NCBI GenBank assembly: GCA_902363595.1
Contig: CABJAP010000008.1
Coordinates: 1 to 64,000 of the forward strand
Direction of reading: 5' to 3'
From: Clostridia bacterium
GTDB lineage: Bacteria > Bacillota > Clostridia > Peptostreptococcales > Anaerovoracaceae
Length of the DNA: 64,000 nucleotides
Part shown: positions 103-18,134 of the stretch, piece after piece
How positions within the stretch are numbered: the first letter of the stretch is position 1
Layout of the letters: each line of letters begins with the position of its first letter
Made by a program: the position numbers and the translations under genes
Notes under the pieces: generated by a model
Databases searched by the model: none
Told to the model about the DNA's origin: nothing
The model's input: only the letters and a program-made list of their open reading frames with translations

Positions 103-803
103 CAGAGCAGGGCTTTTTCTCCCACGCCGCCCAATGACAGGTAGCTTTGCTTCTGCCAATCCTTTTTGAACAGGCAGAGGAAAGAAAGCAGGTCAACGGG
201 GGCTTCAAAGACAAACACTCTTTCGCCCTCGCCCCGGTAGCAGAAGTTAAAGGCTTTGTCGCTGCCTTTCACATCAAGGCGGAAGTTTCCCGCCGTTCCC
301 TTGCTGTGGGCGTAGCGCGGTATTCCGTCCTCGTCCCGCCCCACAAATACGGCGTTGTGGTGGGCTGCGTCCTCGTAAATATCGCCGCTGGCAAAGAAAA
401 AGCCCGTCACATCTTCATCAATGCGGCGGGCGGCTGTGAGGTAGTTCCTCGCTGTTCGGTTGTCGGGGCTGCGGGGCGGTAGCCGGAAGTCGGAGAGGGG
501 CGCGGAGCTTGGTCTATCCGGCGGCGGTGCGGCTCCCTTTTCTCCTGTGAGAAGTTCAACGGCTTCGGTAAAACTCTTGCCAAAAAACTCCATGACAAAA
601 TCAATGGGGCCGCCGCCCTTGCTCTGGCTGTGGCGATACCACTTGTTGCCCCGGACGGTCAAGCTGTCGTGCCGTTTCCATCGGTATTCCTGTCCGGCGC
701 GTTCCAGCGGTTCCCCCTGCGATTGCAGGAACAAAACAAGGTCGGCTTGGTTCGCCCGGTCTATCTGTTCTTGGGTGTAGTACAAAAAACTCACTCCTTT
801 CAT
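57..803 (-). pseudogene. DUF3991/Toprim domain protein, 3' end lost to IS insertion
   Basis: The native start is the ATG at 803, overlapping the relaxase stop as ATGA; this matches the usual relaxase/DUF3991 gene order. The N-terminal part (residues about 1-80, with a TKR-like zinc-free DUF3991 core including WYRHSQSKGGGPIDFVMEF) and the start of a Toprim-type domain (VFVFEAPVDLLSFL, then SLGGVGEKALLW) are intact. Full-length family members continue with an acidic Toprim strand (LCLDNDxAG), which is missing. After residue ~233 the frame runs into IS DNA and stops. The protein would normally process DNA of mobilizable elements (primase-like); this copy is probably dead. Confidence 0.75.
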
Positions 804-2314
804 CGGTCTATGTCGTGCCGCTTTGTGCGGGTCTGTGTCTGCTCCGGCTGGTCGGCGCGGAGTGCAATATCCACGCATTTGCGGATTTTTTGAAGTTCGG
901 AAACATCGGCGCGGGTATCTTTCAGTTTGGCATAATCGCTGTCCCTCTGTGTTTTGAGGTCGGCATATTCCTGTTCCCATTCCGCAATAGGCAAGGTCTT
1001 TGTTCCTTTCGGCAGATTTGCATGGAGATAGCGGCTTGCTGCGTTCCATAGGGTCAACTCGGCGCGGTGGGCTTCCTCGTACTTGTCGCGCTTGTTTGTC
1101 CAGCCGTTTTGCAGCTTTTTCAGCTCATCGTGAACGGGCTTGTACTCGGTGTAGTTCTTCCCGTATTCAATCAGCTTTTGCAGCTTCTTCATGCGTTCCT
1201 CGGCGGTTTTCATTCCTGCCCGGATAGTGTCGGCCTGTTCGCTGACAGAGGAAAGGGCTGCGTCCAGCTCATCAAGGGTAGAGATACCATGCTCGGTCAG
1301 ATAGTTGACCGCTGCCGCTATGGTTTTCAGTTCATCGGCTGTGTGCTGTTGTTGCCAACGCTGCGAATACTTCCGGCTCTTTTCTCTCTGAACGCTCAAA
1401 TACTTCATCAGCAGATTTGCAAGGCCGGGGGATTGTTGCGGCTGTTCCGGGGCGGTTTCCCACGCTTTGAACAGGTCGGCAATCCATTCTTTGAGCTTTC
1501 CAATCTGCGCTCGGATTTCCCGTATAAGGCGGTTTGCCTTTTGGATATTCCGGTTCAGTTCGCCTTTCTCGGTGGCAATACCTTTCTTCTCCATCTGGCA
1601 AGCCGCCACGCCCATGTGGACGGTGGGTATCTCGCCAATGCCGCGCTCGGCGTTGCTGCGGTGGTCGATACGCTCCGGGCTTCCGGCTCGTTCAAGGTAG
1701 GCGTTTGAAATATCCGCCCATGCCTTACGCCACAAGAGGGCGTTGCCCTTGTCGTTCCAGCCGGTCAGGTCAACTTTGTGCGTCTTGTATCTGCCGCTTG
1801 GCAAGCGGATACGCTCGCCGTTTTCATCAAGGTCATATTCCTTTTGGGACTTTGCCGCCCATGCGCCGCGCTCGTCAAGGGGGCGCATGGTAAGCATGAT
1901 GTGACAATGGGGATTGCCCTTGCCGGTGTCGTGAATGGCATAATCAACGCACATTCCTCTGGAAACAAATTGAGAGGAACAGTATTCCCGGACAAGTCGG
2001 ATTTGTTCCTCTCTGGATAACTCTATGGGGAGCGCCGCGTCAATCTCTCTGGCAAGCTGGGCGTTCCCGGCTTTCTCGTAAAGCTCCACGCTGTTCCACA
2101 AGGTTGAACGGTCAGAGAAAGAGGGCGGGGCGTGGGGTGGCAGCATAATTTCCGTATGGACAACACCGCCTTTGCGGGTGTAGTCGTGTGTCATTCCGTC
2201 CCACTCATTTGTCAGCTTTTCGCCGCTTCGGTAGGCGGCTGCGGCAACGGCTGATTTGCCCTTGCCCCGGCTGACAATGCTGATATTACAATGATAGATG
2301 GCTATGGGTATCAC
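800..2314 (-). CDS. mobL: MobQ-family MobA/MobL relaxase
   Basis: Nicks and attaches to oriT to start mobilization. The N-terminal relaxase domain shows AIYHCNISIVSRGKGKSAVA, then YRSGEKL, a conserved GNPHCHIMLTMRPL histidine motif (HxH metal site) and R-rich DHRSNAERG. The C-terminal half is coiled coil (residues about 270-480). The start is odd: GGGAGGTG is followed seven bases on by ATA at 2305, where related genes would have ATG; the only standard alternative is the GTG at 2314, inside that ribosome site. I give the GTG. The gene lies downstream of DUF3847 with an oriT-like site between them, and its stop overlaps the DUF3991 start. Confidence 0.9.
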   Translation of the reverse strand: MIPIAIYHCNISIVSRGKGKSAVAAAAYRSGEKLTNEWDGMTHDYTRKGGVVHTEIMLPPHAPPSFSDRSTLWNSVELYEKAGNAQLAREIDAALPIELSREEQIRLVREYCSSQFVSRGMCVDYAIHDTGKGNPHCHIMLTMRPLDERGAWAAKSQKEYDLDENGERIRLPSGRYKTHKVDLTGWNDKGNALLWRKAWADISNAYLERAGSPERIDHRSNAERGIGEIPTVHMGVAACQMEKKGIATEKGELNRNIQKANRLIREIRAQIGKLKEWIADLFKAWETAPEQPQQSPGLANLLMKYLSVQREKSRKYSQRWQQQHTADELKTIAAAVNYLTEHGISTLDELDAALSSVSEQADTIRAGMKTAEERMKKLQKLIEYGKNYTEYKPVHDELKKLQNGWTNKRDKYEEAHRAELTLWNAASRYLHANLPKGTKTLPIAEWEQEYADLKTQRDSDYAKLKDTRADVSELQKIRKCVDIALRADQPEQTQTRTKRHDIDR

Positions 2315-2504
2315 CTCCCGGATAAAATGAAAACCCGCAAAAATGGTACAGACGCCAAAGGCGGGTATACTGTTTTTGTGGGTGTGCAGGGATAGCCGCG
2401 TAAGCGGCGCAAGGGGTGCAGCCCCTTGTTGCGGCAAAGCCGCCAATGTCGGTCAGAGAGGGAAGCAAGCGGCTTTCTCTCTGTGCCGACAAGCCCTCGG
2501 CAGA

Positions 2505-2553: not shown

Positions 2554-2859
2554 TTATTCGCTTTTCCCGCCCTCGGTGCGTTTTTTCAGATAGCCCCGCG
2601 CTTCCTCGCTCGTCAGGGCAAGCCGGAGAAAGGCGGCGGCTTCTTCGTCGGTCATGGTCTTTGCTTCTGGCACAATGCTCTCAAAGACCGCACCCCGGAC
2701 GATCAGCCGATGGCTGCGCGTCCTGCGTTCCTCTTGGGATAACTTTTGCCGCAACACCTTTTCCCGATTTTCAAGCTGCCGGATTTTCTTCTTCCCGTCC
2801 TCAATCTCGGCTTGCAATTCCTCGCGTTTTTTTCTCTCGGTTTCGTCATGGGTGGTCAC
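2554..2859 (-). CDS. DUF3847 family protein
   Basis: A 101-residue charged protein with an N-terminal coiled coil (residues about 5-48, ERKKREELQAEI then heptads) and a C-terminal segment MTDEEAAAFLRLAL resembling the family. DUF3847 proteins sit just upstream of MobL relaxases in many Clostridia mobile elements, so an accessory role in relaxosome formation is inferred from position; no biochemical function is known to me. The frame has a GTG start at 2859 that overlaps its AGGAGTG ribosome site. An ATG at 2849 is out of frame, so GTG is preferred. Confidence 0.75.
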   Translation of the reverse strand: MTTHDETERKKREELQAEIEDGKKKIRQLENREKVLRQKLSQEERRTRSHRLIVRGAVFESIVPEAKTMTDEEAAAFLRLALTSEEARGYLKKRTEGGKSE

Positions 2860-2881: not shown

Positions 2882-2915
2882 AAAAAGGACAGTCGATTTC
2901 CTCGGCTGTCCTTTT
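2882..2915 (-). terminator. Terminator after the methyltransferase gene
   Basis: AAAAGGACAG and CTGTCCTTTTTC form a 10-bp stem with a 13-base loop, ending in a T run on the minus strand. It lies between the stop of the methyltransferase and the start of DUF3847, so it would end the cargo transcript before the mobilization genes. Confidence 0.7.
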
Positions 2916-2980
2916 GATTAGGGTGTTTGGTTTACTCCGTTCTGCTCAATAAATGGGAATATTAAATATCAATACGCCCT

Positions 2981-3814
2981 TTAATACATTCCTATTAAAA
3001 CATCAGCTTCGATTGTCAAATGTGTGAGAGTACGCCAATCAACGCAATCTTTTTCAACGCAAAAGAGAAGCGGCGTCATTTCAATAAACGACATTCTTTG
3101 TTCTGATGACAACTGTACGGTGGCTGAAACCGTTTCTCTTGAAATGGTTTTAAGATGTTTCTCAAAATATTCAACGACAGACTCATTTGAATAATCTGGA
3201 TTTTTCAAGTGTGCTTGCACTTTAGTCCTGATTTCCCTCAAATGATTTTTCGTAGGAATTACTTTCACAACATATCCGTTAGGAGATAGCAATCGCTGAA
3301 ATTCTTTGTAGTGTGCAGGCGAAAATATGTCTAAAATACAATCCATACTTCCGTCTTTCAAAGGGATTTTTGATAAGTCAGTAACAAACCACTTCACTGC
3401 TTTGCGCTTGTCTTTTTTTGATGCAATCTGTATTGCCTCCCTTGACAAGTCAAAGGCAAAGATGTTTCGTTCTGTTCTTTGCTGTATCTGCCTTGCATAG
3501 AAACCCTCGCCGCAACCAACATCTAAAATGTTTCTTATAGATGGCGTATCAGAAATAAACTGTATGATTTTCTCCAACACAACATCATACATGCCATACT
3601 CCAAAATTTGGTGCCGGTTGTCAAAAGACCGCTTGCTGTAGTTGGTTTTGGGCGATGATTTTAACAACAAATTTACATACCCATATCTTGAAATATCAAA
3701 GCAATGTCCATGTCTACAAATTAGGCTATTGCCTTGTATATCCATTGATTTTGTGCAAATTGGGCATTGAAAATAAACCTTGCTGTCTGCAAAGCGTGAT
3801 AAATTATTATTCAT
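2981..3814 (-). CDS. RlmA/TlrB-type 23S rRNA (guanine-N1)-methyltransferase, mobile cargo
   Basis: Residues 17-37 form the N-terminal zinc site C-x2-C-x12-C-x3-H (C17, C20, C33, H37), the same spacing as in E. coli RlmA. FDISRYGYVNLL follows, then the SAM-binding motif ILDVGCGEGFY (96-106) of a class I methyltransferase. RlmA-I methylates G745 and RlmA-II/TlrB methylates G748 in 23S rRNA helix 35; TlrB gives resistance to tylosin-type macrolides. Base composition is far more AT-rich than the flanking transposon genes, which marks it as captured cargo. It has its own promoter, a leader ORF ending MRLR and a hairpin. The housekeeping copy would not need these, so drug-inducible resistance is inferred. 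Whether the target is G745 or G748 cannot be told here. Confidence 0.85.
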   Translation of the reverse strand: MNNNLSRFADSKVYFQCPICTKSMDIQGNSLICRHGHCFDISRYGYVNLLLKSSPKTNYSKRSFDNRHQILEYGMYDVVLEKIIQFISDTPSIRNILDVGCGEGFYARQIQQRTERNIFAFDLSREAIQIASKKDKRKAVKWFVTDLSKIPLKDGSMDCILDIFSPAHYKEFQRLLSPNGYVVKVIPTKNHLREIRTKVQAHLKNPDYSNESVVEYFEKHLKTISRETVSATVQLSSEQRMSFIEMTPLLFCVEKDCVDWRTLTHLTIEADVLIGMY

Positions 3815-3851
3815 TTGTTTTTCCTCCGTAATTACATCTCTGCTTCAATAA

Positions 3852-3893
3852 GCGAGTTATGCAATACGGATAACCGCAACATAACTCGCGGTT
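3852..3893 (-). promoter_or_regulatory. Attenuator hairpins between leader peptide and methyltransferase
   Basis: A perfect 10-bp inverted repeat (GCGAGTTATG at 3852-3861, CATAACTCGC at 3880-3889) overlaps a competing 6-bp stem AACCGC/GCGGTT (3872-3877 with 3888-3893). The competing stem starts at the base after the leader stop codon. A ribosome stalled on the leader would cover the first arm and change which stem forms. The long stem is followed on the transcript by TTATT, a weak terminator tail. The methyltransferase ribosome site (GGAGG, about 3824) is not in the stem, so transcription attenuation is more likely than site masking. Confidence 0.7.
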
Positions 3894-3920
3894 TTATCTT
3901 AATCTCATAAATGTAACCAT
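3894..3920 (-). CDS. Leader peptide MVTFMRLR
   Basis: An ATG at 3920, eight bases after GGAGG (3929-3933), opens an eight-codon ORF reading MVTFMRLR and then TAA. The Arg-Leu-Arg ending is the macrolide arrest motif known from ErmDL (MTHSMRLR) and from the mefA leader (MTASMRLR). The shared M-x-x-x-MRLR layout is unlikely to be chance in an ORF placed between a promoter and a hairpin. The predicted role is drug-dependent ribosome stalling that turns on the methyltransferase. Confidence 0.8.
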   Translation of the reverse strand: MVTFMRLR

Positions 3921-3968
3921 TGTGTTGTCCTCCAATCAATTCCGCAGTATTACTCTGCTTTTAGAAAA

Positions 3969-3997
3969 AGTATAGCACAAAACTATGAACATTTCAA
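3969..3997 (-). promoter_or_regulatory. Promoter of the methyltransferase unit
   Basis: TTGAAA (3992-3997) and TATACT (3969-3974) are separated by 17 bases on the minus strand, a good sigma-A promoter. Transcription would start near 3962, giving a leader of about 40 bases before MVTFMRLR. The -35 box lies inside the 3' end of the preceding ORF, so the cargo brings its own control inside a tight gene array. Confidence 0.75.
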
Positions 3998-4285
3998 CTC
4001 TATTTCAGCCTGTCGGCGACGTTGCTCTCTCTGGCATACCGCCCGCCGTTCCTCGCTGTATGGGGCGGTCAGACGGAAAGAGAAGCGGCCTTTCTCAATG
4101 TCAAACTCCATGCAGCCCGTTTCCGGGTCTGCGTCAGTCTGCTGGCAGATCGCCGGATAACGGCGGCTGTATGCAAGCAGACGCTTTTTCAAGGCGGTGT
4201 TGTGGGTGCGGATATGGATAAGGGGGTCTTTCTCGTCAAACCAAATATCGGTGGTCTTTTCCTGCTTGGTAAGCCCTGTTCTCAT
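3983..4285 (-). CDS. Conserved mobile-element protein, function unknown
   Basis: A 100-residue protein starting after AGAAAGGAGTTTGC. It contains WFDEKDPLIHIRTHNTALKK, a C-terminal EFDIEKGRFSFRLTAPYSEERR block, and an Arg-rich tail. I recognise it as a small protein that recurs in Tn4451/Tn1549-like elements beside the recombinase genes, without a defined function. The acidic-basic makeup and short length suggest a nucleic-acid or protein-binding accessory role, which is only a guess. The hairpin motif at 4301-4325 lies in its 5' UTR. Confidence 0.7.
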   Translation of the reverse strand: MRTGLTKQEKTTDIWFDEKDPLIHIRTHNTALKKRLLAYSRRYPAICQQTDADPETGCMEFDIEKGRFSFRLTAPYSEERRAVCQREQRRRQAEIELKCS

Positions 4286-4300
4286 GCAAACTCCTTTCTG

Positions 4301-4325
4301 TGCCCCTGTTACGCAATAGGGGCAT
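4301..4325 (-). promoter_or_regulatory. 5'-UTR hairpin with loop TATTGCGTAACA
   Basis: TGCCCC and GGGGCA enclose a loop that reads TATTGCGTAACA on the minus strand, about 20 bases upstream of the 4285 start codon. The same 13-base string precedes the rep gene start at 8649-8661, and a one-mismatch copy in opposite orientation forms the loop of another hairpin at 8750-8762. Confidence 0.5.
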
Positions 4326-4419
4326 TTTTCGGGTGTTTTCTCCGGCTCTTGACTTGGAGAAAACGGCGTTTTTGACGATAAAAACCGCCCGGACGTGGAA
4401 TGTATCGTCGGGGCGGCTG

Positions 4420-4635
4420 TTATCGCAAGATTTCCGATTTTTCCGGCTCTTGACCGTCAGACGCAGATAAACACGAACTGTCGGCAAGTATCGTCTTGAG
4501 CAGCTTGTCGCGGAATGTTTCTGTGCTGCTGTGATTGAAAAATAACTCCGCAACAATAGTCTGCCCGTTTCTCTGCGTCGTGATAATACTGTCGGGGTTC
4601 CGGGGCGCGGTGGGCGTCCCGTTCTGTTCTGTCAT
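4420..4635 (-). CDS. TnpW-family transposon protein
   Basis: A 71-residue protein with the TnpW-like core: RNGQTIVAELFFNHSS, then ETFRDKLLKTIL. TnpW is one of the genes of the Tn4451/Tn4453 mobilizable transposons; it is not required for transposition there and its job is unclear. The gene lies between the serine recombinase and the accessory proteins, as expected. The start ATG follows GAAAGGAGCCGCCT. The acidic C-terminal tail (SASDGQEPEKSEILR) is typical. Confidence 0.7.
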   Translation of the reverse strand: MTEQNGTPTAPRNPDSIITTQRNGQTIVAELFFNHSSTETFRDKLLKTILADSSCLSASDGQEPEKSEILR

Positions 4636-4656
4636 AGGCGGCTCCTTTCTCCGGGC

Positions 4657-4694
4657 GCAAAAGAGGGACTTCCCGTAGCCGGAAAATCCCTCTT
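4657..4694 (-). terminator. Terminator after tnpX
   Basis: AAGAGGGA and TCCCTCTT form a stem around an 18-base loop, with TTTT following on the minus strand. It lies 20 bases after the recombinase stop codon. Confidence 0.6.
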
Positions 4695-4713
4695 GGTTGT
4701 CGGTTATTCTGTT

Positions 4714-6564
4714 TTACTGTGCGGGCTGTGCGGCGGCGGTCTGCGCCTTTCTCCTTGCCCGGTATTCCCGCGCCTTGATACGGTCATACTCCCGCTGCTT
4801 TTCAAGGTTTCGCGCCCGGTACTCCCTTGAATACTGCCGGTGATAGGCGCGGCTCTTTTCCTTTTTGGCTTCTTCGATTTCCTCCCGCATTTGCCGGATT
4901 TCCTGCTCCGTTGGCTCTGTAAGCTGTGTCACTTCGTTCTCAAATTTGCCGATATAGTTGAAATATATCCCGATGTGCTGAATGGCTTGTTTTGCCCTTT
5001 TCTTGTCGCGCTCATGCACTTCAATCCGGCTGATAAACTCGTTGAGAATGGCGGGGGTCAGGTCGGTAAAGGCAGCGTAGCGTTCCGTCAGCTTCAAAAA
5101 CTTCTGCGCCCGTCCGCCCGCGTTCTCAAAAGCGGATAGCTGCTCTTGCAGCTCGGCAAGCTCCGCTTTCAGCGCATAGTATTCTTCTGAATACTTCTGC
5201 GACATTTGCTCATAGCGGTCTTGCGGGATCGTGCCGAGGGCGTTGTCCTCATAGAGCTTGTTCAGCACCTTGTCAATCTGTTCAAGGCGCGTCGTGATTT
5301 GCGGGATACGCTTCTGCTGTTTCTTGGTCTTGTCGGTCTGCTGCATGGCAAGGTTCTTTTTCACTAAGGCTTCAAATTCCGCCCAGTTGCTGATAGAATA
5401 GTCCTCGATTTTCTTCAGCACTTCCGCGATGGTCTGCATGAGCAAATCCGCGTCAATGATGTGCGGGGAATTGCATTTGGGGTTTTTGGCTTTTCCCTTG
5501 TGGTACTCGCTGCAATAGGCAACATGACGCTTGCCGCCATTCCGATAATCTATGCGAATGTGCATTTTCGCACCGCAATCCTTACAGAAAAGCAAGCCCG
5601 ACAAAGGGTGGATTTCCCCGTCCCCGTTGGGGCGTTTGACGGGCGCATTTTCCAAAATCCGCTGTACGGTTTCAAAGTCGGTGCGGTCAATAATCGGCTC
5701 ATGCACATTTTCGGTTATCTGCCATTGGCTCCGGTCTACATAGTGGTTCCGCTTGTCGCGGAAGTGCTTTGTGGTCTTGAAGTTGACAACATCACCGCAA
5801 TACTCCTGCCGTGTGAGGATATGGGTCAGGGTGGCTTTGTTCCACTTATAGCGGTTGGCCTCATTGAGCGCCCTGTTTTTACAGGTTCCCCGCCCGCGCT
5901 CTTTCATGTAGAATGTGGGCGTTGGGATTTGCGCCTGCGTGAGATATACGGCAATTTGGTTTCGGTTTTTTCCGTCCAGAAACAGGCGAAAAATCAAACG
6001 AACAACTCCGGCGGCTTCCTCGTCGATAATCCAAAAATCCTTGTTGTCCGGGGATTTGACATAGCCATAGGGGGCTTCGGTGGCAATCGGCTTTCCACTC
6101 ATGCCCTTCGTCTTAATGCCGGTCTTTACTTTCTTGCTGATGTCCTTTGCGTACCACTCCGACATGATGTTGATAAAGGGCGCAAACTCCAATGTATCGG
6201 GCTTTTCGCTGTCTATCCCGTTGTTGACTGCGATAAAGCGCACATTGTTCCGTCTGAATATCTCCATCGCATTGCCGACTTGGAGATAGTCACGCCCCCA
6301 GCGTGTCAGGTCTTTCATAATGCAGACACCGATTTTCCCGTTCTCTACATCGTCCATCATGCGGGAGTAGGCAGAACGGTCAAAAAATCTGCCGCTTTCG
6401 TCATCGTCAATGTAGTGCCGGATATTGGTTAAGTGCTGCCCTCTGGCGTAGTTCTCCAAAAAGATTTTTTGGTTCTGTATCGAGTTACTCTCACCGCCGT
6501 CCCTGTCCTCGTCGCCCACGGAAAGGCGGGAGTAAAGGGCTGTAATTTTACTATAATCAGTCAT
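4714..6564 (-). CDS. tnpX: TnpX-like large serine recombinase (Tn4451 family)
   Basis: Catalyses excision and insertion of the transposon. Counted from the ATG at 6564 (AGGAGGTTATGCAC upstream), the catalytic motif ALYSRLSVGDE puts Arg13 and Ser15 exactly where TnpX has them. Next come the resolvase domain (to about 150, with KDLTRWGRDYLQVG), the recombinase domain (about 165-300), a zinc ribbon (FCKDCG, then a CSEYH pair and C of PKCN) and a long C-terminal coiled coil with a basic tail. An upstream in-frame ATG at 6624 has no ribosome site. The gene sits at the end of the transposon, about 50 bases from the junction with virD4. Confidence 0.93.
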   Translation of the reverse strand: MTDYSKITALYSRLSVGDEDRDGGESNSIQNQKIFLENYARGQHLTNIRHYIDDDESGRFFDRSAYSRMMDDVENGKIGVCIMKDLTRWGRDYLQVGNAMEIFRRNNVRFIAVNNGIDSEKPDTLEFAPFINIMSEWYAKDISKKVKTGIKTKGMSGKPIATEAPYGYVKSPDNKDFWIIDEEAAGVVRLIFRLFLDGKNRNQIAVYLTQAQIPTPTFYMKERGRGTCKNRALNEANRYKWNKATLTHILTRQEYCGDVVNFKTTKHFRDKRNHYVDRSQWQITENVHEPIIDRTDFETVQRILENAPVKRPNGDGEIHPLSGLLFCKDCGAKMHIRIDYRNGGKRHVAYCSEYHKGKAKNPKCNSPHIIDADLLMQTIAEVLKKIEDYSISNWAEFEALVKKNLAMQQTDKTKKQQKRIPQITTRLEQIDKVLNKLYEDNALGTIPQDRYEQMSQKYSEEYYALKAELAELQEQLSAFENAGGRAQKFLKLTERYAAFTDLTPAILNEFISRIEVHERDKKRAKQAIQHIGIYFNYIGKFENEVTQLTEPTEQEIRQMREEIEEAKKEKSRAYHRQYSREYRARNLEKQREYDRIKAREYRARRKAQTAAAQPAQ

Positions 6565-6611
6565 GTGCATAACCTCCTGTGCGTCCATATAGGCTTCCTT
6601 TACACTTAAAA

Positions 6612-6917
6612 TTATGCACTCCAACGTGCAGAACCGTATTCCATGCCTTTTCGGTACTTCTTCGCGTTCTTGCCTTTCATGTAAACGGCAAGCCGGATAA
6701 TGACCGCCCCCGCAATGCCGATAAGCAGATCGGCGGGGTGCAGGCTCGGCGCGATACTGGAAAAGGCGGCGGCAAAGCCCGTCCCAAGCTGCAAGAGCTT
6801 TTCGCTTGCGTCTGCGCCGGGGGTAAGGCGTATTGCTGCGCCTATCTTGTCAAACAGATAGACAAAGAGCAGATAGGGCAGGTTGAGGATAAGCAGCTTT
6901 TTGACTTCCTGCTTCAT
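6612..6917 (-). pseudogene. VirD4/TraG coupling protein, N-terminus only (disrupted)
   Basis: The ORF starts by ATGA overlap with pcfB and reads as the N-terminal membrane domain of a conjugative coupling protein: two hydrophobic helices (about 8-24 and 62-80), then KGKNAKKYRKGMEYGSARW. In family members the motif GSARWG leads into several hundred residues of ATPase. Here it is cut right after the Trp codon (6621-6623), followed by two residues and a stop. Position and the adjacent tnpX indicate that the Tn4451-like transposon inserted here. The remainder of virD4 should lie on the far side of the transposon, outside the window. Confidence 0.85.
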
Positions 6918-11299: not shown

Positions 11300-12394
11300 T
11301 TACCTGTCTGGAATATCCTTCCCCCAGTACATGTCATGTCGAACTTCAGCATCATAAAACTGATTGATTGTTGCAGGAGCGTTATACAATACCGTCAGCA
11401 TATACTGCCGGATATTCTTCACTTTGCTTGTACTCCTGTCAAGACTGAAAAACACATACTGGATGTGTTCATACCCGACTTTGAGCAAACGGCTCTTGAC
11501 CACTTGTGTAGGCACAGCTTCCCCATTGATCTGTTGATATGTCTTTGTCGAACATATTGCATCCAGCATCAGCTCTACCAGCTCTTCTACTCGTCCAGTT
11601 CCATAGCTCTGACAAAGGATCTCATATTCGATATTATCATGAATTAACTGTCGATACTCATTTCTCTCCTGTATCCTATCTCTCCCTTTCTCTTGTTCAG
11701 ATAGATATTGATAAGATTCATTCTCACTAAATTCAGTATAATTATATTCAGTATTATTACAGTTTGTTTTTGAAACTTCTTGAAGTTTGTTTTCTAAACT
11801 TCTTGAAGTTTGTTTTTCAAACTCCTTGAAGTTTGTTTTTGAAACTTCTTGAAGTTTATTTTTCAAACTTCCTGAAGTTTGTTTTTCAAACTTCTGTGTA
11901 TTTACGGGCTTTTCCGGCTCTTTTTTCGCATATTCTTCTATTTCTGTCTCTGTATTTTCTTTTCTCTCTGCTACATTTTCCGGTGTTTCTTCCGAATCAA
12001 AGATTGCTGGCTCATCTGGATATTCTGTCAGGCTGAAATTTTTCACGTAAATAACATTTGTTTTTCCAAGTCCGATTCGCCTCTTCTCAATCAATCCAAT
12101 CCCTTTTTCCTGATCCAGCTCTTTTAGACAATTCACAGCCTTATTCCTGCCACAGTTAAGCATTTCCATAATCTCTTCCACCGAAAAGAAAATATATGCC
12201 CTGTCCTCTTCATCAAACCACCGGTTCTTGATGGACAGTGACATCCGGTCTAACATCAGTCCGTACAGCACCTTTGCTTCGCAGGAGAGATTTTTAAAAT
12301 ATTCACTTGTAAACAGCAGTTTGGGAATACGATAAAAACTGTACATATCGCATTCCATTCCTTGAAAATAATGGAATGTTGCTCTTATACTCAT
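11300..12394 (-). CDS. repA: Replication initiator RepA (RepA_N-type, DUF6017 C-terminus)
   Basis: A 364-residue initiator. The RepA_N domain (about 17-115) begins YSFYRIPKLLFTSEYFKNLS and contains EAKVLYGLMLDRMSLS and a winged helix ending EKRRIGLGKTNVIYV. A low-complexity linker (about 150-215) holds 23-residue repeats (EKQTSGSLKNKLQEVSKTN and copies). The C-terminal DUF6017-like domain carries YRQLIHDNIEYEIL, ELVELMLDAICSTKTY and KVKNIRQYMLTVLYNAP. It replicates the excised element. It lies 24 bases downstream of parB, likely in the same operon. The linker DNA carries 23-bp iterons, as in replicons whose origin is inside rep. Confidence 0.88.
   Translation of the reverse strand: MSIRATFHYFQGMECDMYSFYRIPKLLFTSEYFKNLSCEAKVLYGLMLDRMSLSIKNRWFDEEDRAYIFFSVEEIMEMLNCGRNKAVNCLKELDQEKGIGLIEKRRIGLGKTNVIYVKNFSLTEYPDEPAIFDSEETPENVAERKENTETEIEEYAKKEPEKPVNTQKFEKQTSGSLKNKLQEVSKTNFKEFEKQTSRSLENKLQEVSKTNCNNTEYNYTEFSENESYQYLSEQEKGRDRIQERNEYRQLIHDNIEYEILCQSYGTGRVEELVELMLDAICSTKTYQQINGEAVPTQVVKSRLLKVGYEHIQYVFFSLDRSTSKVKNIRQYMLTVLYNAPATINQFYDAEVRHDMYWGKDIPDR
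11773..11896 (-). repeat. Six 23-bp iterons inside repA
   Basis: The core AAACTTCTTGAAGTTT (an inverted repeat of AAACTTC) recurs at 11773, 11796, 11819, 11842, 11865 and (partial) 11888, exactly 23 bases apart. As 23 is not a multiple of three, the protein repeats only every 69 bases, yet the frame stays open. Spacing is therefore conserved at DNA level, as expected of initiator-binding sites in an origin. Confidence 0.75.
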
Positions 12395-12418
12395 GACACA
12401 TCCCTCCCTTCGTACTTA

Positions 12419-13285
12419 TCAATGATTCTGATTGCTCCATTCCTCCAAAAGCTGACATATAACAGTCCGTATCTTCTGTTCATCATACTCTGGAGGAAAA
12501 TACTTCTTAATTTCATCCTGTTTTAATGTTACCGTTGTTTTCTTTTTACGCTCTCCTATAACCAGGAGCCGCACAATCTCTTTTGTCAGCGTTTTTTCTT
12601 CTCGATGTTGCCTTATTTTTTTTGCCTGTTCCAGACTTGGATATTTTCCGGTACTCTCATGCACTTCCTCCACCATCTCCTGTTCTGGAACCGTAAGGTA
12701 GGAAAGCTCTACACCTACCTGCAATCCGATCACATCACGATCTACTGCGTTTAATAGGTCATTCATCAGATAAGTAAGCCGGATATAGCGATACACCTGC
12801 CTTGCACTGTCATTTGCGTTCTTTCCAATGTCTTTCGCACTGATACCGCCTGATGTTCCCTGATGATTCATTGCTTCCATCTTCATACGGTAAGCAAATG
12901 CCTTTTCACTTGGGAGTATATTAGGTCTCTGCAGATTGCTGTCTACCATCGCACGGACAGCTGTATCTTGATCCATATTTCTGATAATAACCGGAACCTC
13001 TTTAAGACCAGCAAGTTGTGCCGCATGTCTCCTTCTGTGACCGGCGATGATTTCATATTCACCATCACCCAGCGGTCGTACCAGTAATGCTGTAAGAATT
13101 CCCTCTTCTTTCACACTTTCCACCAGTTCCGCCATTGCCTCATCATCATTTACTTGAAATGGATGGTTCTCGAAAGAATGTAAATGCTCAAGTGAAACCT
13201 GCTGGATATCGTTCGTTTCTTCTCCTCCTCCAAGTAATTCATCATAAGATGTCAGTTTTATCTTCGATGCACTTCTACCTTTCAT
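12419..13285 (-). CDS. parB: ParB/RepB/Spo0J family partition protein
   Basis: A 288-residue DNA-binding partner of ParA. The N-terminal ParB/Srx fold spans about 28-118 (EHLHSFENHPFQ, then a GHRRRHAAQLAGL CTPase arginine motif and NLQRPNILPSEKAFAYRMKM). The middle HTH (about 130-200) includes SGGISAKDIGKNANDSARQVYRYIRL. It would bind centromere-like sites; the three 15-bp palindromes at 9424, 11213 and 11278 are candidates. Its start overlaps the parA stop by 11 bases, which implies translational coupling. Confidence 0.92.
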   Translation of the reverse strand: MKGRSASKIKLTSYDELLGGGEETNDIQQVSLEHLHSFENHPFQVNDDEAMAELVESVKEEGILTALLVRPLGDGEYEIIAGHRRRHAAQLAGLKEVPVIIRNMDQDTAVRAMVDSNLQRPNILPSEKAFAYRMKMEAMNHQGTSGGISAKDIGKNANDSARQVYRYIRLTYLMNDLLNAVDRDVIGLQVGVELSYLTVPEQEMVEEVHESTGKYPSLEQAKKIRQHREEKTLTKEIVRLLVIGERKKKTTVTLKQDEIKKYFPPEYDEQKIRTVICQLLEEWSNQNH

Positions 13286-14081
13286 CCAAAAGCACCTCCT
13301 GTGTCATCTGCCAATATGCAGCCGCTACTTTTCCTTTTGGATCATGCTCAAATATGCTGATTCCTTCCGCACTGATTTCAGCTGCTCGTACTGAAAATGG
13401 AATACTCTGTGGAAAAATCTTAATCTGGTTTCCATATGTATCAAAAATCAGATCAGATATATCTCTTGCATAGTTCGTTCGGTTATCCACCATTGTGATC
13501 AATATACCTCCAATTTTCAGTTGTTTGTTAAGCTGTCTTCGCACCTTTCCTATCGTCCGTATCAGCTGTTCTAGACCCTTTACAGGAAGATAAGCCGCCT
13601 GGACAGGTATAATAACTGCATCGACACTGGCAAGTGCATTGATCGTCAGCATTCCAAGTGATGGCATACAGTCAATCAATATATAGTCGTATTCTTCTCT
13701 CATTCTTTCTATATATTGTTTTAAGACAAGTTCCCTGCTCATAATATTTACAAGTGAAACTTCCATTCCAGAGAGTTCGATGTTTGCCGGAATCAAATCA
13801 ATTCCTTCCTGGTGATGTAAAATTCCCAGTGTATTTTCAAATAGTTCATCTTCTACAATCTTTGTCAGAATAGTAGCCAGTGTGATTGGTAATTCATCTG
13901 GGTTATGATACCCAAGACTTGCTGTCATACTTCCCTGCGGATCATTGTCAATCACAAGCACTTTCTTCCCTGCTTTTGCAAGTCCGACTGCCAGATTCAC
14001 GCAACTTGTTGTCTTGCCAACCCCGCCTTTTTGTGAACACAATGCCAGCACTTTACAATCCTTCATTACTTTCTCTTCCAT
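13275..14081 (-). CDS. parA: ParA family ATPase
   Basis: A deviant Walker A motif KGGVGKTT (about 18-25) is followed by VNLAVGLAKAGKKVLVIDNDPQGS, and Walker B reads YDYILIDCMPSLG. It is a partition ATPase that segregates or stabilises the replicating form of the element with ParB and centromere sites. The first ATG (14081) lies within the end of the upstream ORF; a second ATG at 14066 is an alternative start. Length (268) is normal for the family. Confidence 0.92.
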   Translation of the reverse strand: MEEKVMKDCKVLALCSQKGGVGKTTSCVNLAVGLAKAGKKVLVIDNDPQGSMTASLGYHNPDELPITLATILTKIVEDELFENTLGILHHQEGIDLIPANIELSGMEVSLVNIMSRELVLKQYIERMREEYDYILIDCMPSLGMLTINALASVDAVIIPVQAAYLPVKGLEQLIRTIGKVRRQLNKQLKIGGILITMVDNRTNYARDISDLIFDTYGNQIKIFPQSIPFSVRAAEISAEGISIFEHDPKGKVAAAYWQMTQEVLLDER

Positions 14082-14445
14082 CCTTTTTATCCTCCCATAA
14101 ATAACTTGAACCTTTCAGCATCCATAATGCTGCTTCCAAAAATGCAAGATACCGTTCTGTCATACTATCAAGAACCGATTCTGAAATAACTGGTTTTTCA
14201 GACTTCAAATCTTTTGCCACATCCTCCAAAACCAAACTCATTTCCTTCATTTCTGACCGGATAATCTCAATTGTTTCTTTCTTTCCAACAACACATACAT
14301 GATTGTAAATGCATGATCGGACGATATAATCCTGTTTTTTCATTCCGCTCACTTTCACTCGTTCTTCAATTGTTGCTTTTTCATAAGAATTCACCCGAAA
14401 AGAAATGGTCGTTGTGTTGTGTTTTCCATGTCTGTCACCAGCCAT
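14053..14445 (-). CDS. Ribbon-helix-helix MobC-like protein
   Basis: The N-terminus TTTISFRVNSYEKATIEERVKVSGMKKQDYIVRS is a typical ribbon-helix-helix domain of the relaxosome/MobC type (beta strand, two helices). The rest (about 60-130) is helical and mostly featureless. MobC-like proteins help relaxases bind oriT. No relaxase for this module is visible, so a regulatory role for parA or int is also possible. Its 3' end overlaps parA by 29 bases. Confidence 0.65.
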   Translation of the reverse strand: MAGDRHGKHNTTTISFRVNSYEKATIEERVKVSGMKKQDYIVRSCIYNHVCVVGKKETIEIIRSEMKEMSLVLEDVAKDLKSEKPVISESVLDSMTERYLAFLEAALWMLKGSSYLWEDKKDGRESNEGL

Positions 14446-14448
14446 CGC

Positions 14449-15528
14449 TTATTCCTCCTCTTCCTCATGTTTCTTATCTAGCAAACCTGCTAATTTACTC
14501 TGTGTAGACGGATACAGATGTGAATAAGTGTTCAACGTGGTTTCCACCTTTTCATGTCCAAGGCGTTCTGCAATCTCCAATGGAGCCACCCCCATATCAA
14601 CCAGCATACTGGCATGGGAATGGCGGAGATCATGAAGTCGTATCCGCTTTACACCAGACCGCTCGATTCCGGTAGCCATACAATGTTCCATATGCGATTT
14701 GGTAAACCGAAAAAGTCTTTCCTTTTTCATAATTCCATACAAATGACTGCAATACTCCCTAAATTCCTCTGCAAGAAAATCCGGCATCGTAATCACACGG
14801 ATACTCTTTGGAGTTTTCGGCTGCGTGATCATATCCTTTCCTTTCAGTCTCTGATAAGATTTATTGATTGATATGGTTTTCTCTTCAAGATTGATGTCAT
14901 TATAAGTAAGTGCAAGCAATTCACCGATACGCATTCCGGTCCAGTACAACAAAAGAAACGCCATTCTTGTCTCCGGCTTATCACTTACTGTTTCCAGAAA
15001 AGCATTGAACTCTTCCTGCATCCAGAAGTCCTTCGGTTCTCCTTTACTCTTGCCAATCGCTCCTGCCTTCCTGCAGGGATTATCCTGCAGGTTATAATAC
15101 CGCATTGCATAATTGAAGATTGCAGTCAGCTGGCAGTTCACTGTTTTCAGATAAGTAGGAGAATATCCTTTTCCATTCTTATCCTTATACGTCAGCAACT
15201 CATTCTGCCATGCACGGACGTCTGCCACCGTAATTTCACTGAGAATCTTCTTTTCAAAATAAGGCTTGATTTTCAGGTCAATAATATATCGCTTCGTGTA
15301 CATAGTGTTTTCTCTGAGACGGACATCCATATCTTTGTAATAAATCTCCAGAAAATTTCCAAATTCAATATCCACACCCTGGCTCTGCTGTTGCAGGAAA
15401 TCTCTTTCCCATTCCTTAGCTTCACCCTTGGTCCTGAATCCTCTTTTCTGTTTTCTTTTCCGATTTCCCTGCCAGTCTTTGTAATAGACCTGTACTTTCC
15501 AGTTTTTTCCTTCTTTGTAAACCCCCAT
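14449..15528 (-). CDS. int: Tyrosine site-specific integrase
   Basis: The N-terminal arm-binding AP2-like domain (about 1-50, VYKEGKNWKVQVYYKDWQG) and SAM-like core-binding domain (about 55-145) precede the catalytic domain. Catalytic residues are Arg200 (TGMRIGELLAL), His299 and Arg302 (HDLRHSHASM), His325 (RLGHEKVETT) and nucleophile Tyr335. All are present, so the enzyme should be active. It lies near the island end abutting guaA, as expected for an element that uses the 3' end of guaA as its target. The C-terminus is a poly-Glu tail. Confidence 0.93.
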   Translation of the reverse strand: MGVYKEGKNWKVQVYYKDWQGNRKRKQKRGFRTKGEAKEWERDFLQQQSQGVDIEFGNFLEIYYKDMDVRLRENTMYTKRYIIDLKIKPYFEKKILSEITVADVRAWQNELLTYKDKNGKGYSPTYLKTVNCQLTAIFNYAMRYYNLQDNPCRKAGAIGKSKGEPKDFWMQEEFNAFLETVSDKPETRMAFLLLYWTGMRIGELLALTYNDINLEEKTISINKSYQRLKGKDMITQPKTPKSIRVITMPDFLAEEFREYCSHLYGIMKKERLFRFTKSHMEHCMATGIERSGVKRIRLHDLRHSHASMLVDMGVAPLEIAERLGHEKVETTLNTYSHLYPSTQSKLAGLLDKKHEEEEE

Positions 15529-15530
15529 TG

Positions 15531-15728
15531 CTAATCCTCGACTTTCATGCCATAAATCTTTTCTGCCAGGAATTTCGTAGAGATTTTTCCAGCTACTACA
15601 ATATAGCCTTTTGCCTTCAATTCTTTGTTGTATTCTCGCATCAGACTATATGCATAAGTTTTTGAAACTCCAAGAATTGCACACACATCATCCACATCCA
15701 TATACATTTTTTCCTGCATCATACTCAT
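15531..15728 (-). CDS. Small HTH protein, excisionase-like (copy 1)
   Basis: A 65-residue protein with a winged/excisionase-type HTH: MYMDVDDVCAILGVSKTYAYSLMREYNKEL, then KGYIVVAGKISTKFLAEKIYG. It is closely related in layout to the next two genes. It lies two bases before int, so an Xis role is likely. Its start overlaps the previous gene's stop (ATGA-type). Confidence 0.7.
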   Translation of the reverse strand: MSMMQEKMYMDVDDVCAILGVSKTYAYSLMREYNKELKAKGYIVVAGKISTKFLAEKIYGMKVED

Positions 15729-15943
15729 ACCGCTTTATCCTCCTTCAAATACTGCTCAACATGTTCCAGACCATAGATCTTGTCCTCTACATAGCGGGTT
15801 GGCACCCGACCGAGAATCACATAATAGTTCTTGCTTGCCAGATCGGCATTCATTCTTTCCACTACCCGGTAAGCAAACGAAACTGATAATCCAAAGAGTT
15901 CTGCAATGTCTTCCACTGATAAATACATTTTTCTCTTACGCAT
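15725..15943 (-). CDS. Small HTH protein, excisionase-like (copy 2)
   Basis: The start ATG at 15943 follows AAAGGAATGGTTTC. The product reads MRKRKMYLSVEDIAELFGLSVSFAYRVVERMN, then GRVPTRYVEDKIYGLE. It has the same HTH-plus-wing architecture as its neighbours (conserved G-x-V/I-[PS]-T-[RK]-[YF]-x-x-x-[KR]-x-Y-G). Overlapping ORFs on both sides imply coupled translation of all three proteins. Confidence 0.7.
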   Translation of the reverse strand: MRKRKMYLSVEDIAELFGLSVSFAYRVVERMNADLASKNYYVILGRVPTRYVEDKIYGLEHVEQYLKEDKAV

Positions 15944-16163
15944 GAAACCATTCCTTTCCCTCTTCCTGTGGAATCTCACAAGTATCTTCTACTCCGTAGA
16001 AACGCTTCACAAAATACTTTGTCGGAACTTTTCCTCTAAGCGTCAGGTAGCCCTGTTCTTCCAGTTCCTTGTTCAGATTTCCGATGATTTCATAAGCCGA
16101 TGTCTGTTTTACTTCCAGAAGTTCACATATATCGGCTGCCTTTAAAAATAATTTATTCTGCAT
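15936..16163 (-). CDS. Small HTH protein, excisionase-like (copy 3)
   Basis: A 75-residue protein: KLFLKAADICELLEVKQTSAYEIIGNLNKELEEQGYL, then GKVPTKYFVKRFYGVED. It is the first gene of the leftward integration module and the third paralog of the HTH set. The extended C-terminus (EIPQEEGKEWFHA) is unique to this copy. It could be the regulator that starts excision, with the other two as Xis; this cannot be settled from sequence. Confidence 0.7.
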   Translation of the reverse strand: MQNKLFLKAADICELLEVKQTSAYEIIGNLNKELEEQGYLTLRGKVPTKYFVKRFYGVEDTCEIPQEEGKEWFHA

Positions 16164-16589
16164 AATCAGTACCTCCTGTGTTTTGAATATTTATCTCTTC
16201 ATATACTCTGTACTGGCAGATGCAAAATCGGACATCATTTTCCGAAATTTATCAAATTTTCTTGTTTTTTAATTCTCCATCAGTGTGATTACTGTGTCAT
16301 GGAGTTTAAGCTCATCGAAAGTAAAGAACCTTTCTGTGGTATCTGTTTTCTAAATGCAGGCAACAAAAAAACAGTCTGCCTTGACGAAAATCACTTCAAT
16401 CAAAACAAACTGTTCTTCATATTTACTCTAATTTTATTTTATGAGAATAACCGATTTCACGAAATTTGCAGGTGAATCTGGAATATAAACAAGAGAAAAA
16501 AATAATTTTTAAACTCCATTTGCACTCCATTTGGTCTTTTCGACACCCCGCAAAGCCTTTATTTATGGGCTTTTCCGCGATTTTTCAAG
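16164..16589. other. Island edge next to guaA, predicted att region
   Basis: No gene was found in these 426 AT-rich bases. They include a direct repeat CTCCATTTG (twice near 16516-16540), possibly an Int arm-site, and an inverted repeat AAAGCC/GGCTTT near 16553-16574 that may serve as the guaA terminator. The guaA 3' end (ending at 16590) is the likely attachment core because integrases of this class target that gene end. The second att copy is outside the window, so the exact core cannot be defined. Confidence 0.5.
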
Positions 16590-18134
16590 CTACTCGAACT
16601 CTATCGTCCCAGGCGGCTTACTAGTGCAATCATAAAACACCCGATTCACATGAGCCACCTCATTGACAATCCGGCTCGTCACCTTCCCCATCACCTCCCA
16701 GGGAATCTGGGCCGCCTCCGCCGTCATAAAGTCAATCGTATTCACAGCACGCAGCGCGATGGCATAATCGTAAGTCCGCTCATCACCCATAACGCCAACC
16801 GACCGCATATTGGTCAGCGCCGCAAAATACTGCCCGATATCGCGAGCGATCCCGGCCGCTGCGATCTCCTCACGGTAGATCGCATCCGCATCCTGCACGA
16901 TCTTCACCTTCTCAGCCGTAACCTCGCCGATAATGCGAATCCCAAGACCCGGCCCCGGGAACGGCTGACGGAACACCAAATGCTCCGGAATTCCCAGCTC
17001 CAGTCCAGCCTTGCGGACCTCATCCTTAAACAGATCCCGCAGAGGCTCGATAATTTCCTTAAAATCCACATAGTCCGGCAGGCCGCCCACATTGTGATGA
17101 GACTTGATGACAGCAGACTCGCCGCCTACGCCGCTTTCCACCACGTCGGGATAAATGGTCCCCTGAACCAAGAAGTCCACTGACCCGATCTTTTTCGCTT
17201 CCTCTTCAAAGACCCGGATAAACTCTTCTCCGATGATTTTCCGTTTCTTCTCCGGCTCCGTTACACCGGCCAGCTTCTCATAAAAGCGCTGCTGGGCATT
17301 GACCCGGATGAAGTTCAGATCATACGGGCCTGACGGGCCGAACACCTCTTCCACTTCGTCGCCCTCATTTTTACGGAGAAGGCCGTGATCCACGAATACA
17401 CAGGTGAGCTGCGATCCGATGGCTTTTGACAGCATAACTGCCGCCACCGAAGAATCTACGCCGCCCGACAGGGCGCAGAGCACACGGCCGGAGCCAACCT
17501 TGGCCCGGATGGCTTCGATGGAAGTTTCCACAAAGGAATCCATTCTCCAGTCGCCTTTGCAGCCACAGACATTATACACAAAATTGGACAGCATCTTTGT
17601 CCCTTCAGCAGTGTGAAGCACTTCCGGATGGAACTGCAATGCATAAAGACCCTTTTCCGGCATTTCCGCTGCCGCCACCGGACAGTCAGGCGTATGGGCT
17701 GTTACAACAAAACCCTGCGCAGCCGACTCAATGTAGTCATTGTGGCTCATCCAGCAAACCGTCTTTTCAGACACATCAGAAAACAGCTTGGACGATTGAT
17801 CCACCGTAACCTCAATTTTTCCGTATTCCCGAACCGGCGCCTTACAAACATGGCCGCCCAAAAGATGCATCATCAGCTGTGAGCCGTAGCAAATGCCCAA
17901 AACGGGAATTCCCAGCTCAAAAAGCTCCTTTGTATAAGTGGGCGAATCCGCTTCGTAAGCGCTGCTTGGACCCCCGGTGAGGATGATCCCTTTGGGGTTC
18001 ATCGCCTTGATTTCTTCAATACCTCTTTTATAAGAATAAATTTCACAGTACACGTTGCATTCACGCACACGCCGGGCGATCAGCTGATTATACTGCCCGC
18101 CGAAATCCATCACAATTATTTTTTCATGCTGCAT
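16590..18134 (-). CDS. guaA: GMP synthase, glutamine-hydrolysing
   Basis: Converts XMP, ATP and glutamine to GMP. The class I glutaminase domain has nucleophile Cys82 (GICYGSQ) with His169 and Glu171 (FHPE). The ATP pyrophosphatase P-loop SGGVDSS is at 223-229, and the dimerization domain ends KPPGTIEFE, the family terminus. Length (514) is normal. It lies 12 bases after guaB in a purine operon. The mobile island abuts its 3' end without altering the reading frame, typical of tRNA-like use of guaA as an integration target. Confidence 0.98.

What the first reader, a model, noticed from the sequence alone, without database searches (positions are those of the whole stretch)
2981..3997. Mobile RlmA-type rRNA methyltransferase under an MRLR leader-peptide attenuator
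On the minus strand a sigma-A promoter (TTGAAA-17-TATACT), a leader ORF reading MVTFMRLR and then stop, a competing pair of hairpins, and an RlmA/TlrB-type 23S methyltransferase occur in order. The MRLR ending matches the macrolide-arrest leaders of ErmDL (MTHSMRLR) and mefA (MTASMRLR). The methyltransferase has the RlmA zinc spacing C-x2-C-x12-C-x3-H. It is AT-rich cargo in a Tn4451-like transposon. Together these suggest a macrolide-inducible resistance gene outside the Erm and Mef/Msr families. I do not know of a described case of this pairing.
Basis: partly seen in the sequence, partly recalled or inferred. Interest (0 to 1): 0.93.

Follow-up and report, generated by a model that had tools for sequence, protein, structure and literature searches.

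The report
Mobile rRNA methylase with stalling leader
A small DNA cassette that has recently spread through many gut bacteria carries a probable tylosin-type ribosome methylase behind a tiny leader peptide that most likely senses the drug and switches the gene on; this kind of switch is already known from Bacillus, but we found no description of this mobile, simpler form.

Summary
The parts described are there: a promoter with extended -10, a leader ORF MVTFMRLR-stop (3920-3894, minus strand), competing RNA helices near the SD, and an RlmA-family methyltransferase (2981-3814). The claim that the pairing is undescribed is wrong: Bacillus subtilis tlrB (RlmAII, G748) is induced by tylosin through leader MIIQFIRYR, and 180 such leaders were predicted (PMC6851288). 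Here 36 of 150 RlmA-family upstream regions carry an ORF ending [RK]x[RK] (shuffles: mean 4.7, max 10). The 33 kept as credible all have Phe at -5; the ten Erm/Mef/Msr leaders tabulated in PMC4335068 have Ser or Ala there. So the window's leader is of the tlrB class. Unlike the other 32 it has no hairpin with U-rich tail, and its enzyme lies in an RlmAII clade where 27 scanned relatives show no credible leader. The cassette is 99-100% identical in 38 genomes of 26 named genera, within backbones averaging 82-98%: a recent sweep. Best reading: a mobile G748 methyltransferase induced by tylosin-type macrolides through terminator-less attenuation. Stalling, inducer, target base, resistance and switch direction are inferred; folding did not confirm that a stalled ribosome opens the SD.

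The parts
3969..3997 (-). promoter TTGAAA-17-TATACT; -35 lies in host-element sequence, extended -10 in the cassette
   Evidence: boundary from L001
3929..3933 (-). SD of the leader ORF (GGAGG)
3894..3920 (-). leader ORF MVTFMRLR-stop, predicted macrolide-stalling peptide of the tlrB class (Phe at -5, R-x-R end)
   Evidence: intact in 36 of 38 copies
3909..3919 (-). leader-ORF arm of a long-range helix with the pre-SD region (partner about 3829-3839)
   Evidence: prediction
3872..3893 (-). hairpin A (-10.1 kcal/mol), excludes C
   Evidence: prediction
3852..3889 (-). hairpin C (-21.8 kcal/mol), followed by UUAUUGAA, only 4 U in 8
   Evidence: prediction; no U-rich tail by the test
3825..3870 (-). 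hairpin B (-17.1 kcal/mol), takes up part of the methyltransferase SD, excludes C
   Evidence: prediction; two natural variants fit it
3823..3827 (-). SD of the methyltransferase (GGAGG)
2981..3814 (-). RlmA/TlrB-family 23S rRNA (guanine) methyltransferase, 277 aa, RlmAII clade by the tree
2900..3999 (-). cassette core that is 99-100% identical on average in 36-38 loci; 36-40% GC (nearby bins 2700-2899 average 0.988-0.991)
4714..6624 (-). large serine recombinase of the carrier element (Resolvase, Recombinase, Zn ribbon, DUF4368)
800..2446 (-). MobA/MobL relaxase of the carrier element
2554..2859 (-). DUF3847 protein of the carrier element, directly downstream of the cassette

Best explanation
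A mobile, drug-inducible resistance cassette. Without drug, ribosomes finish MVTFMRLR and leave, and the RNA folds so that the methyltransferase SD region is closed off (leader ORF with pre-SD helix, or hairpin B). When a macrolide sits in the exit tunnel, the ribosome stalls at R-L-R with Leu7 in the P site and Arg8 in the A site, covers the leader ORF and the 5' edge of hairpins A and C, and keeps the SD open. The enzyme, of RlmAII (TlrB) type, then N1-methylates G748 of 23S rRNA, which hinders drugs such as tylosin whose mycinose touches G748. Because the leader has the Phe(-5) of tlrB leaders, mycinosyl 16-membered macrolides are likelier inducers than erythromycin. Shown here: anatomy, protein family, leader class, recent sweep, no hairpin with U-rich tail. 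Inferred: stalling, inducer, switch direction, target base, resistance.
For: RlmA zinc ribbon and methyltransferase domain, alignment to RlmA 1p91, tree position with streptococcal/clostridial RlmAII (S. mitis relative 48% identical). Leader 36 of 150 against 4.7 in shuffles; Phe(-5) in 33 of 33 kept, 13 distinct peptides. Precedent with toeprint, reporter and methylation data in B. subtilis (PMC6851288). Leader intact in 36 of 38 copies. Cassette 99-100% identical in 38 genomes. A Mef(A)-like gene beside one copy and a TetM-family gene near another.
Against: Masking a stalled ribosome did not open the SD in general: GGAGG unpaired 0.60 free, and 0.56, 0.70, 0.54, 0.52, 0.34, 0.34 for footprints ending at leader nt +30 to +35; 0.46 free and 0.33 stalled on the longer RNA, 0.72 only for a stall one codon earlier. 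In partial transcripts hairpin C forms with or without the ribosome. The leader/pre-SD pairing (18 of 27 nt) equals the best of 60 spacer shuffles. The enzyme's own clade has no credible leader in 27 scanned relatives. No data on drug, rRNA or resistance. Known G748 methylation alone gives only low-level tylosin resistance in S. fradiae (PMC6851288).
Confidence: 0.58

Rival explanations
1. Same cassette, but induced chiefly by 14-membered macrolides such as erythromycin, like ErmDL and MefL.
For: The last four residues MRLR equal those of ErmDL/MefL; short MRLR peptides stall ribosomes with macrolides (PMC8298421 passages; PMC4335068 passages).
Against: Residue 4 is Phe; in ErmDL all changes of Ser4 except Ala or Gly lower erythromycin stalling (PMC8298421). 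B. subtilis tlrB, with Phe at -5, is not induced by erythromycin (PMC6851288). G748 methylation is not known to protect against erythromycin (recalled).
Confidence: 0.17
2. The methyltransferase is a housekeeping-type RlmAII carried along by the element; the leader is a chance or decayed ORF and expression is constitutive.
For: 27 scanned relatives in the same clade have no credible leader; folding does not show a clean switch; promoter-like sites are common in the region; two of 38 copies have lost the leader.
Against: Leader ORF, SD, R-x-R end and Phe(-5) together; 36 of 38 copies keep the leader, though these copies are too young to prove selection; the sweep suggests a selected function.
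Confidence: 0.13
3. The enzyme methylates G745 or another RNA site, so the phenotype is not tylosin-type resistance.
For: The best NCBIfam model is the G745 enzyme (158 bits, cut-off 303).
Against: The window protein groups with streptococcal sequences, the genus in which RlmAII acts on G748 (PMC4605293).
Confidence: 0.12

Closest known systems
B. subtilis tlrB (yxjB): tylosin-inducible RlmAII with leader MIIQFIRYR (PMC6851288)
   Same: RlmA-family enzyme behind a short leader with F-[IMV]-R-x-R-stop; leader ORF predicted to pair with the pre-SD region.
   Different: Window copy is mobile; 32 of 32 other tlrB-class leaders here have a hairpin with a U-rich tail and the window has none; spacer 79 nt against 101-192; enzyme from another part of the RlmA tree.
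Streptococcal RlmAII (S. pneumoniae; PMC4605293)
   Same: Same clade; an S. mitis member is 48% identical.
   Different: Described as intrinsic to the genome (PMC4605293); no credible leader in the scanned members of the clade.
ErmDL / ErmK / MefE / MsrA leaders (PMC4335068, PMC8298421)
   Same: MRLR stall motif and attenuation logic.
   Different: Ser or Ala at residue 4 in all ten tabulated leaders (nine Ser, one Ala), Phe here; downstream genes are Erm, Mef or Msr.
TlrB / MyrA / ChrB G748 methyltransferases
   Same: RlmA family; 71-94 bits on their NCBIfam models.
   Different: Far below those models' cut-offs (550-625 bits); from antibiotic producers (recalled).
Priestia megaterium plasmid operon MTHFMRLRFPTLNQ - RlmA homologue - msr(I) (L043)
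   Same: An MRLR leader with Phe at residue 4 ahead of an RlmA homologue.
   Different: Leader 336 nt upstream and longer; enzyme 35% identical; followed by an Msr-type ABC-F gene. Only one of the Priestia plasmids was fetched.

Membership tests
RlmA-family 23S rRNA methyltransferase | RlmA zinc ribbon (PF21302) plus class I methyltransferase domain | tested here: met
   48.1 bits, cut-off 27; Methyltransf_25 and _11 above cut-off; 1p91 E 5e-28
RlmAII (TlrB, G748) | groups with a genus whose RlmAII acts on G748 | tested here: met
   streptococcal-type and S. mitis sequences in the same part of a quick tree of 82 rows; several long branches, no bootstrap
RlmAII (TlrB, G748) | reaches a curated NCBIfam cut-off | tested here: not met
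   clade controls do not reach one either, so the feature does not discriminate
RlmAII (TlrB, G748) | methylates G748 | not testable with these tools
   needs primer extension
tlrB-type attenuator | short leader ORF ending R/K-x-R/K before the gene | tested here: met
tlrB-type attenuator | Phe at -5 (a feature derived here from 33 leaders) | tested here: met
tlrB-type attenuator | leader-ORF / SD-region pairing that a stalled ribosome would undo | tested here: inconclusive
   pairing predicted; opening by a masked ribosome not shown
tlrB-type attenuator | intrinsic terminator between leader and gene | tested here: not met
   no hairpin followed by 6 U in 8; 32 of 32 others have one; one search finds none in the spacer either
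tlrB-type attenuator | tylosin-dependent stalling and NusG-dependent pause | not testable with these tools
   needs toeprinting and pausing assays
Erm/Mef/Msr MRLR leaders | MRLR stall motif | tested here: met
Erm/Mef/Msr MRLR leaders | Ser or Ala at residue 4 | tested here: not met
   Phe in the window; PMC4335068 Table 3
Erm methyltransferase | rRNA adenine dimethylase domain (recalled as Pfam RrnaAD) | tested here: not met
   not among the 10 Pfam families matched
Tn4451 | large serine recombinase of TnpX type | tested here: met
   domain architecture only; not compared with TnpX itself
Tn4451 | Mob/Pre-type relaxase TnpZ (recalled) | tested here: not met
   MobA/MobL (PF03389) found instead

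The most novel reading that the evidence does not exclude
A G748 methyltransferase of the leaderless streptococcal/clostridial RlmAII clade gained, by convergence or recombination, a tlrB-class stalling leader without the terminator, and so became a compact inducible tylosin-type resistance cassette that has swept gut Firmicutes of many genera; and Phe at -5 is what sets this leader class (G748 methylases, mycinosyl macrolides) apart from the Ser/Ala class (Erm/Mef/Msr, erythromycin).
Probability: 0.42. Interest if true: 0.72.

Novelty: new variant of a known kind. Interest (0 to 1): 0.55.

Why it matters
If true, a resistance determinant that reaches no NCBIfam cut-off is already common in gut Clostridia; its 90% protein cluster counts 1,152 member sequences. 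It would make drug-inducible G748 methylation a transferable trait, and it offers a direct test of which leader residue selects the inducing macrolide, which PMC6851288 leaves open (it places the specificity among the first six leader residues; Phe(-5) is one of them).

Tried and rejected
Rejected: the 'undescribed pairing' claim (PMC6851288). Rejected: NCBIfam as a judge between G745 and G748, because clade controls behave like the window protein. Led nowhere: plasmids by near DNA search (no match) and by protein (72 records, all under 60% identity); phage records by protein (13 records, all under 60%); viral contigs by leader DNA (0), by the protein (none) and by an alignment (13 loci, 25-47%); a close copy in 197 genomes of the genus of G888, unnamed, probably Streptococcus (0 of 197, no positive control); leader-region DNA in plasmids (one match, E 0.5); Rfam (0). 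The one genome-contig scan works from short peptides and finds close relatives only. DNA around the 65-87% relatives (P0004, P0007, P0008, P0010) was not available, so whether they carry the leader is unknown and no covariation test was made. Empty site not shown: element DNA was found in 4 of 391 genomes of the class, and the same 4 carry the methyltransferase. Equilibrium folding did not settle what hairpin C does, nor show that a stalled ribosome opens the SD.

Papers: PMC6851288 (outline with abstract, sections 7 and 13 whole, passages); PMC4335068 (passages, Table 3 within them); PMC8298421, PMC4605293, PMC8116656 (passages). Takamatsu 2018 (rlmAII and mirosamicin) seen only as a title in a reference list. 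Figures S2-S4 of PMC6851288 were not seen, so leaders found here may be among its 180. No paper on a mobile RlmA with such a leader appeared in the listings; those searches cover only the open-licence library and show at most 10 to 20 titles each.

Rows left out: of the hits, three (G023, G401, G1158) were not fetched. In one search, 3 of 36 hits (L060, L109, L165) were set aside as chance-like before the Phe(-5) count; none of the three has Phe at -5. Two leaders on the reverse strand are probably mis-oriented loci and were not counted. L043 (MRLR internal) is not in the 36. L087's upstream is partly masked. The 33 leaders come from related Bacilli in good part (13 distinct peptides, 10 and 7 copies of the two commonest), so they are not 33 independent cases; likewise several of the ten Erm/Mef/Msr leaders are identical.

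Full report
What is there. On the minus strand, in order: TTGAAA-17-TATACT with an extended -10, a leader SD, the ORF MVTFMRLR-stop (3920-3894), a 79-nt spacer, a second SD and a 277-residue methyltransferase (2981-3814). The enzyme has the RlmA zinc ribbon (PF21302) and a class I methyltransferase domain and aligns with RlmA 1p91.

Mobility and sweep. One scan of the species-genome collection gave 39 loci. 38 are 99-100% identical in the matched part (L038 over residues 1-204 only); 36 are placed in Bacillota, 1 in Bacteroidota, 1 unplaced; 34 of 38 have a genus name, 26 genera in all. The 39th (Companilactobacillus) is 46% identical. In 100-bp bins, the cassette core (2900-3999) averages 0.990-1.000 identity in 36-38 loci, while bins from 800 to 2599 and from 4000 to 6599 average 0.82-0.98 in the loci that align there. 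GC is 0.36-0.40 in windows inside the cassette and 0.47-0.59 in the flanks. This points to a recent sweep of an AT-rich cassette through related element backbones. The carrier has a large serine recombinase with DUF4368 and a MobA/MobL relaxase. Element DNA occurs in 4 of 391 genomes of the class, the same 4 that carry the methyltransferase in that sample. The protein's 90% cluster counts 1,152 member sequences.

Surroundings of other copies. In L001 (Agathobacter ruminis) a Mef(A)-like efflux gene (57-58% identical to the best annotated Mef(A) copies; 541.7 bits on the MefA model, cut-off 675) lies between the element and the cassette. The element's GAGTTGAAATGTTCATA, which supplies the window's -35, stays on the far side, so the cassette begins at GTTTTGTGCTATACT. 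L009 (Oscillibacter valericigenes) has a TetM-family gene nearby and a frameshifted leader, which could also be a sequencing error. L038 (Prevotella) has an IS1380-family transposase directly upstream, a cut leader and a gene cut after about residue 204. The leader peptide is intact in 36 of 38 copies: 35 exact and one with a synonymous change (L033). One copy (L018) has a change in the leader SD.

The precedent. PMC6851288 shows that B. subtilis yxjB (tlrB) is RlmAII, that G748 methylation gives tylosin resistance, and that tylosin, not erythromycin, induces it through stalling at the end of MIIQFIRYR, with a NusA-dependent terminator, an SD-sequestering structure and a NusG pause. Its authors predicted 180 leaders ending R/K-x-R/K upstream of tlrB homologues (figures not seen).

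How general the leader is. I took up to 400 nt upstream of 150 RlmA-family genes (the window and 149 relatives) and asked for a 5-16 residue ORF with an SD-like stretch and a final [RK]x[RK]. 36 of 150 qualify; 40 rounds of dinucleotide shuffling gave 4.7 on average and at most 10. I set aside three chance-like hits; 33 remain, with 13 distinct peptides. All 33 have Phe at -5, which was not selected for; -4 is I, M or V; -2 is L, Y, F, N or I. Many are from related genomes, and the Phe codon is TTC in 30 of 33, so part of the conservation may be at the RNA level. The ten Erm/Mef/Msr leaders of PMC4335068 Table 3 have Ser (nine) or Ala (one) at that place. A Priestia megaterium plasmid carries MTHFMRLRFPTLNQ, an ErmDL-like peptide with Phe at residue 4, ahead of an RlmA homologue and msr(I). 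In ErmDL all changes of Ser4 except Ala or Gly lower erythromycin stalling (PMC8298421 passage). The window's leader is thus of the tlrB class, and a tylosin-type inducer is the better guess.

How it differs. 32 of 32 other tlrB-class leaders have a hairpin (-12.0 to -33.6 kcal/mol) with a U-rich tail; the window has none by the same test. All 33 leader-to-gene RNAs fold better than shuffles (z below -2, mean -6.6; window -5.3). The window's leader ORF pairs with the pre-SD region (18 of 27 nt; shuffled spacers mean 5.3, but the best of 60 also reaches 18). The spacer is 79 nt against 101-192. In a quick tree of 82 proteins the window enzyme lies with streptococcal-type and clostridial proteins, where 27 relatives with scanned upstream DNA show no credible leader, while the other six leader rows lie in another part; the leader label needs 5 changes, reached by 2 of 500 shuffles. 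The tree has long branches and no bootstrap. A separate gain of the leader, or repeated loss, is indicated.

The switch. Hairpins A (-10.1), B (-17.1, includes part of the SD) and C (-21.8 kcal/mol) are predicted; A excludes C, C excludes B, and the leader/pre-SD helix excludes B. Two natural variants fit B: one in its bulge (five loci that share other changes, so perhaps one event) and one that keeps a G-U pair (L005). A ribosome stalled with Leu7 in the P site (as in ErmDL) would cover the leader ORF and the 5' edge of A and C. But the computed SD accessibility rises above the free state for one assumed footprint only (0.70 against 0.60; others 0.34-0.56), and falls in the longer fold (0.46 to 0.33). 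The direction of the switch is therefore inferred from the B. subtilis precedent, not from folding.

Verdict. It is a new, mobile and simpler variant of tlrB-type attenuation. Drug response, target base and resistance remain to be shown.

Noticed in passing
L001 3300-4818: A Mef(A)-like efflux gene (57-58% identical to annotated Mef(A)) sits directly upstream of the cassette; by eye it has its own short upstream ORF (MLICVR) followed by a hairpin and a T run.
   Followed up: partly
L043 2613-5333 (NZ_CP009919.1, Priestia megaterium plasmid): An ErmDL-like leader with Phe at residue 4 (MTHFMRLRFPTLNQ) precedes an RlmA homologue and an msr(I)-type gene.
   Followed up: partly
L040 (NZ_CP119346.1) and similar records: Small plasmids of about 3 kb in Staphylococcus and Mammaliicoccus carry an RlmA-like gene, 32% identical to the window's; no leader was found in the one copy fetched.
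   Followed up: partly
L038 3483-5741: In a Prevotella contig an IS1380-family transposase lies directly upstream of a cut copy of the cassette.
   Followed up: yes
window 11300-18134: ParA/ParB/RepA-type genes and a tyrosine integrase (14449-15528) lie beside a gene that reads by eye like guaA (16590-18134), as if a larger integrative element ends there.
   Followed up: no
window 3983-4285: The small element ORF just upstream of the cassette ends differently from its counterparts in L001 and L009 because of an indel near its 3' end.
   Followed up: no
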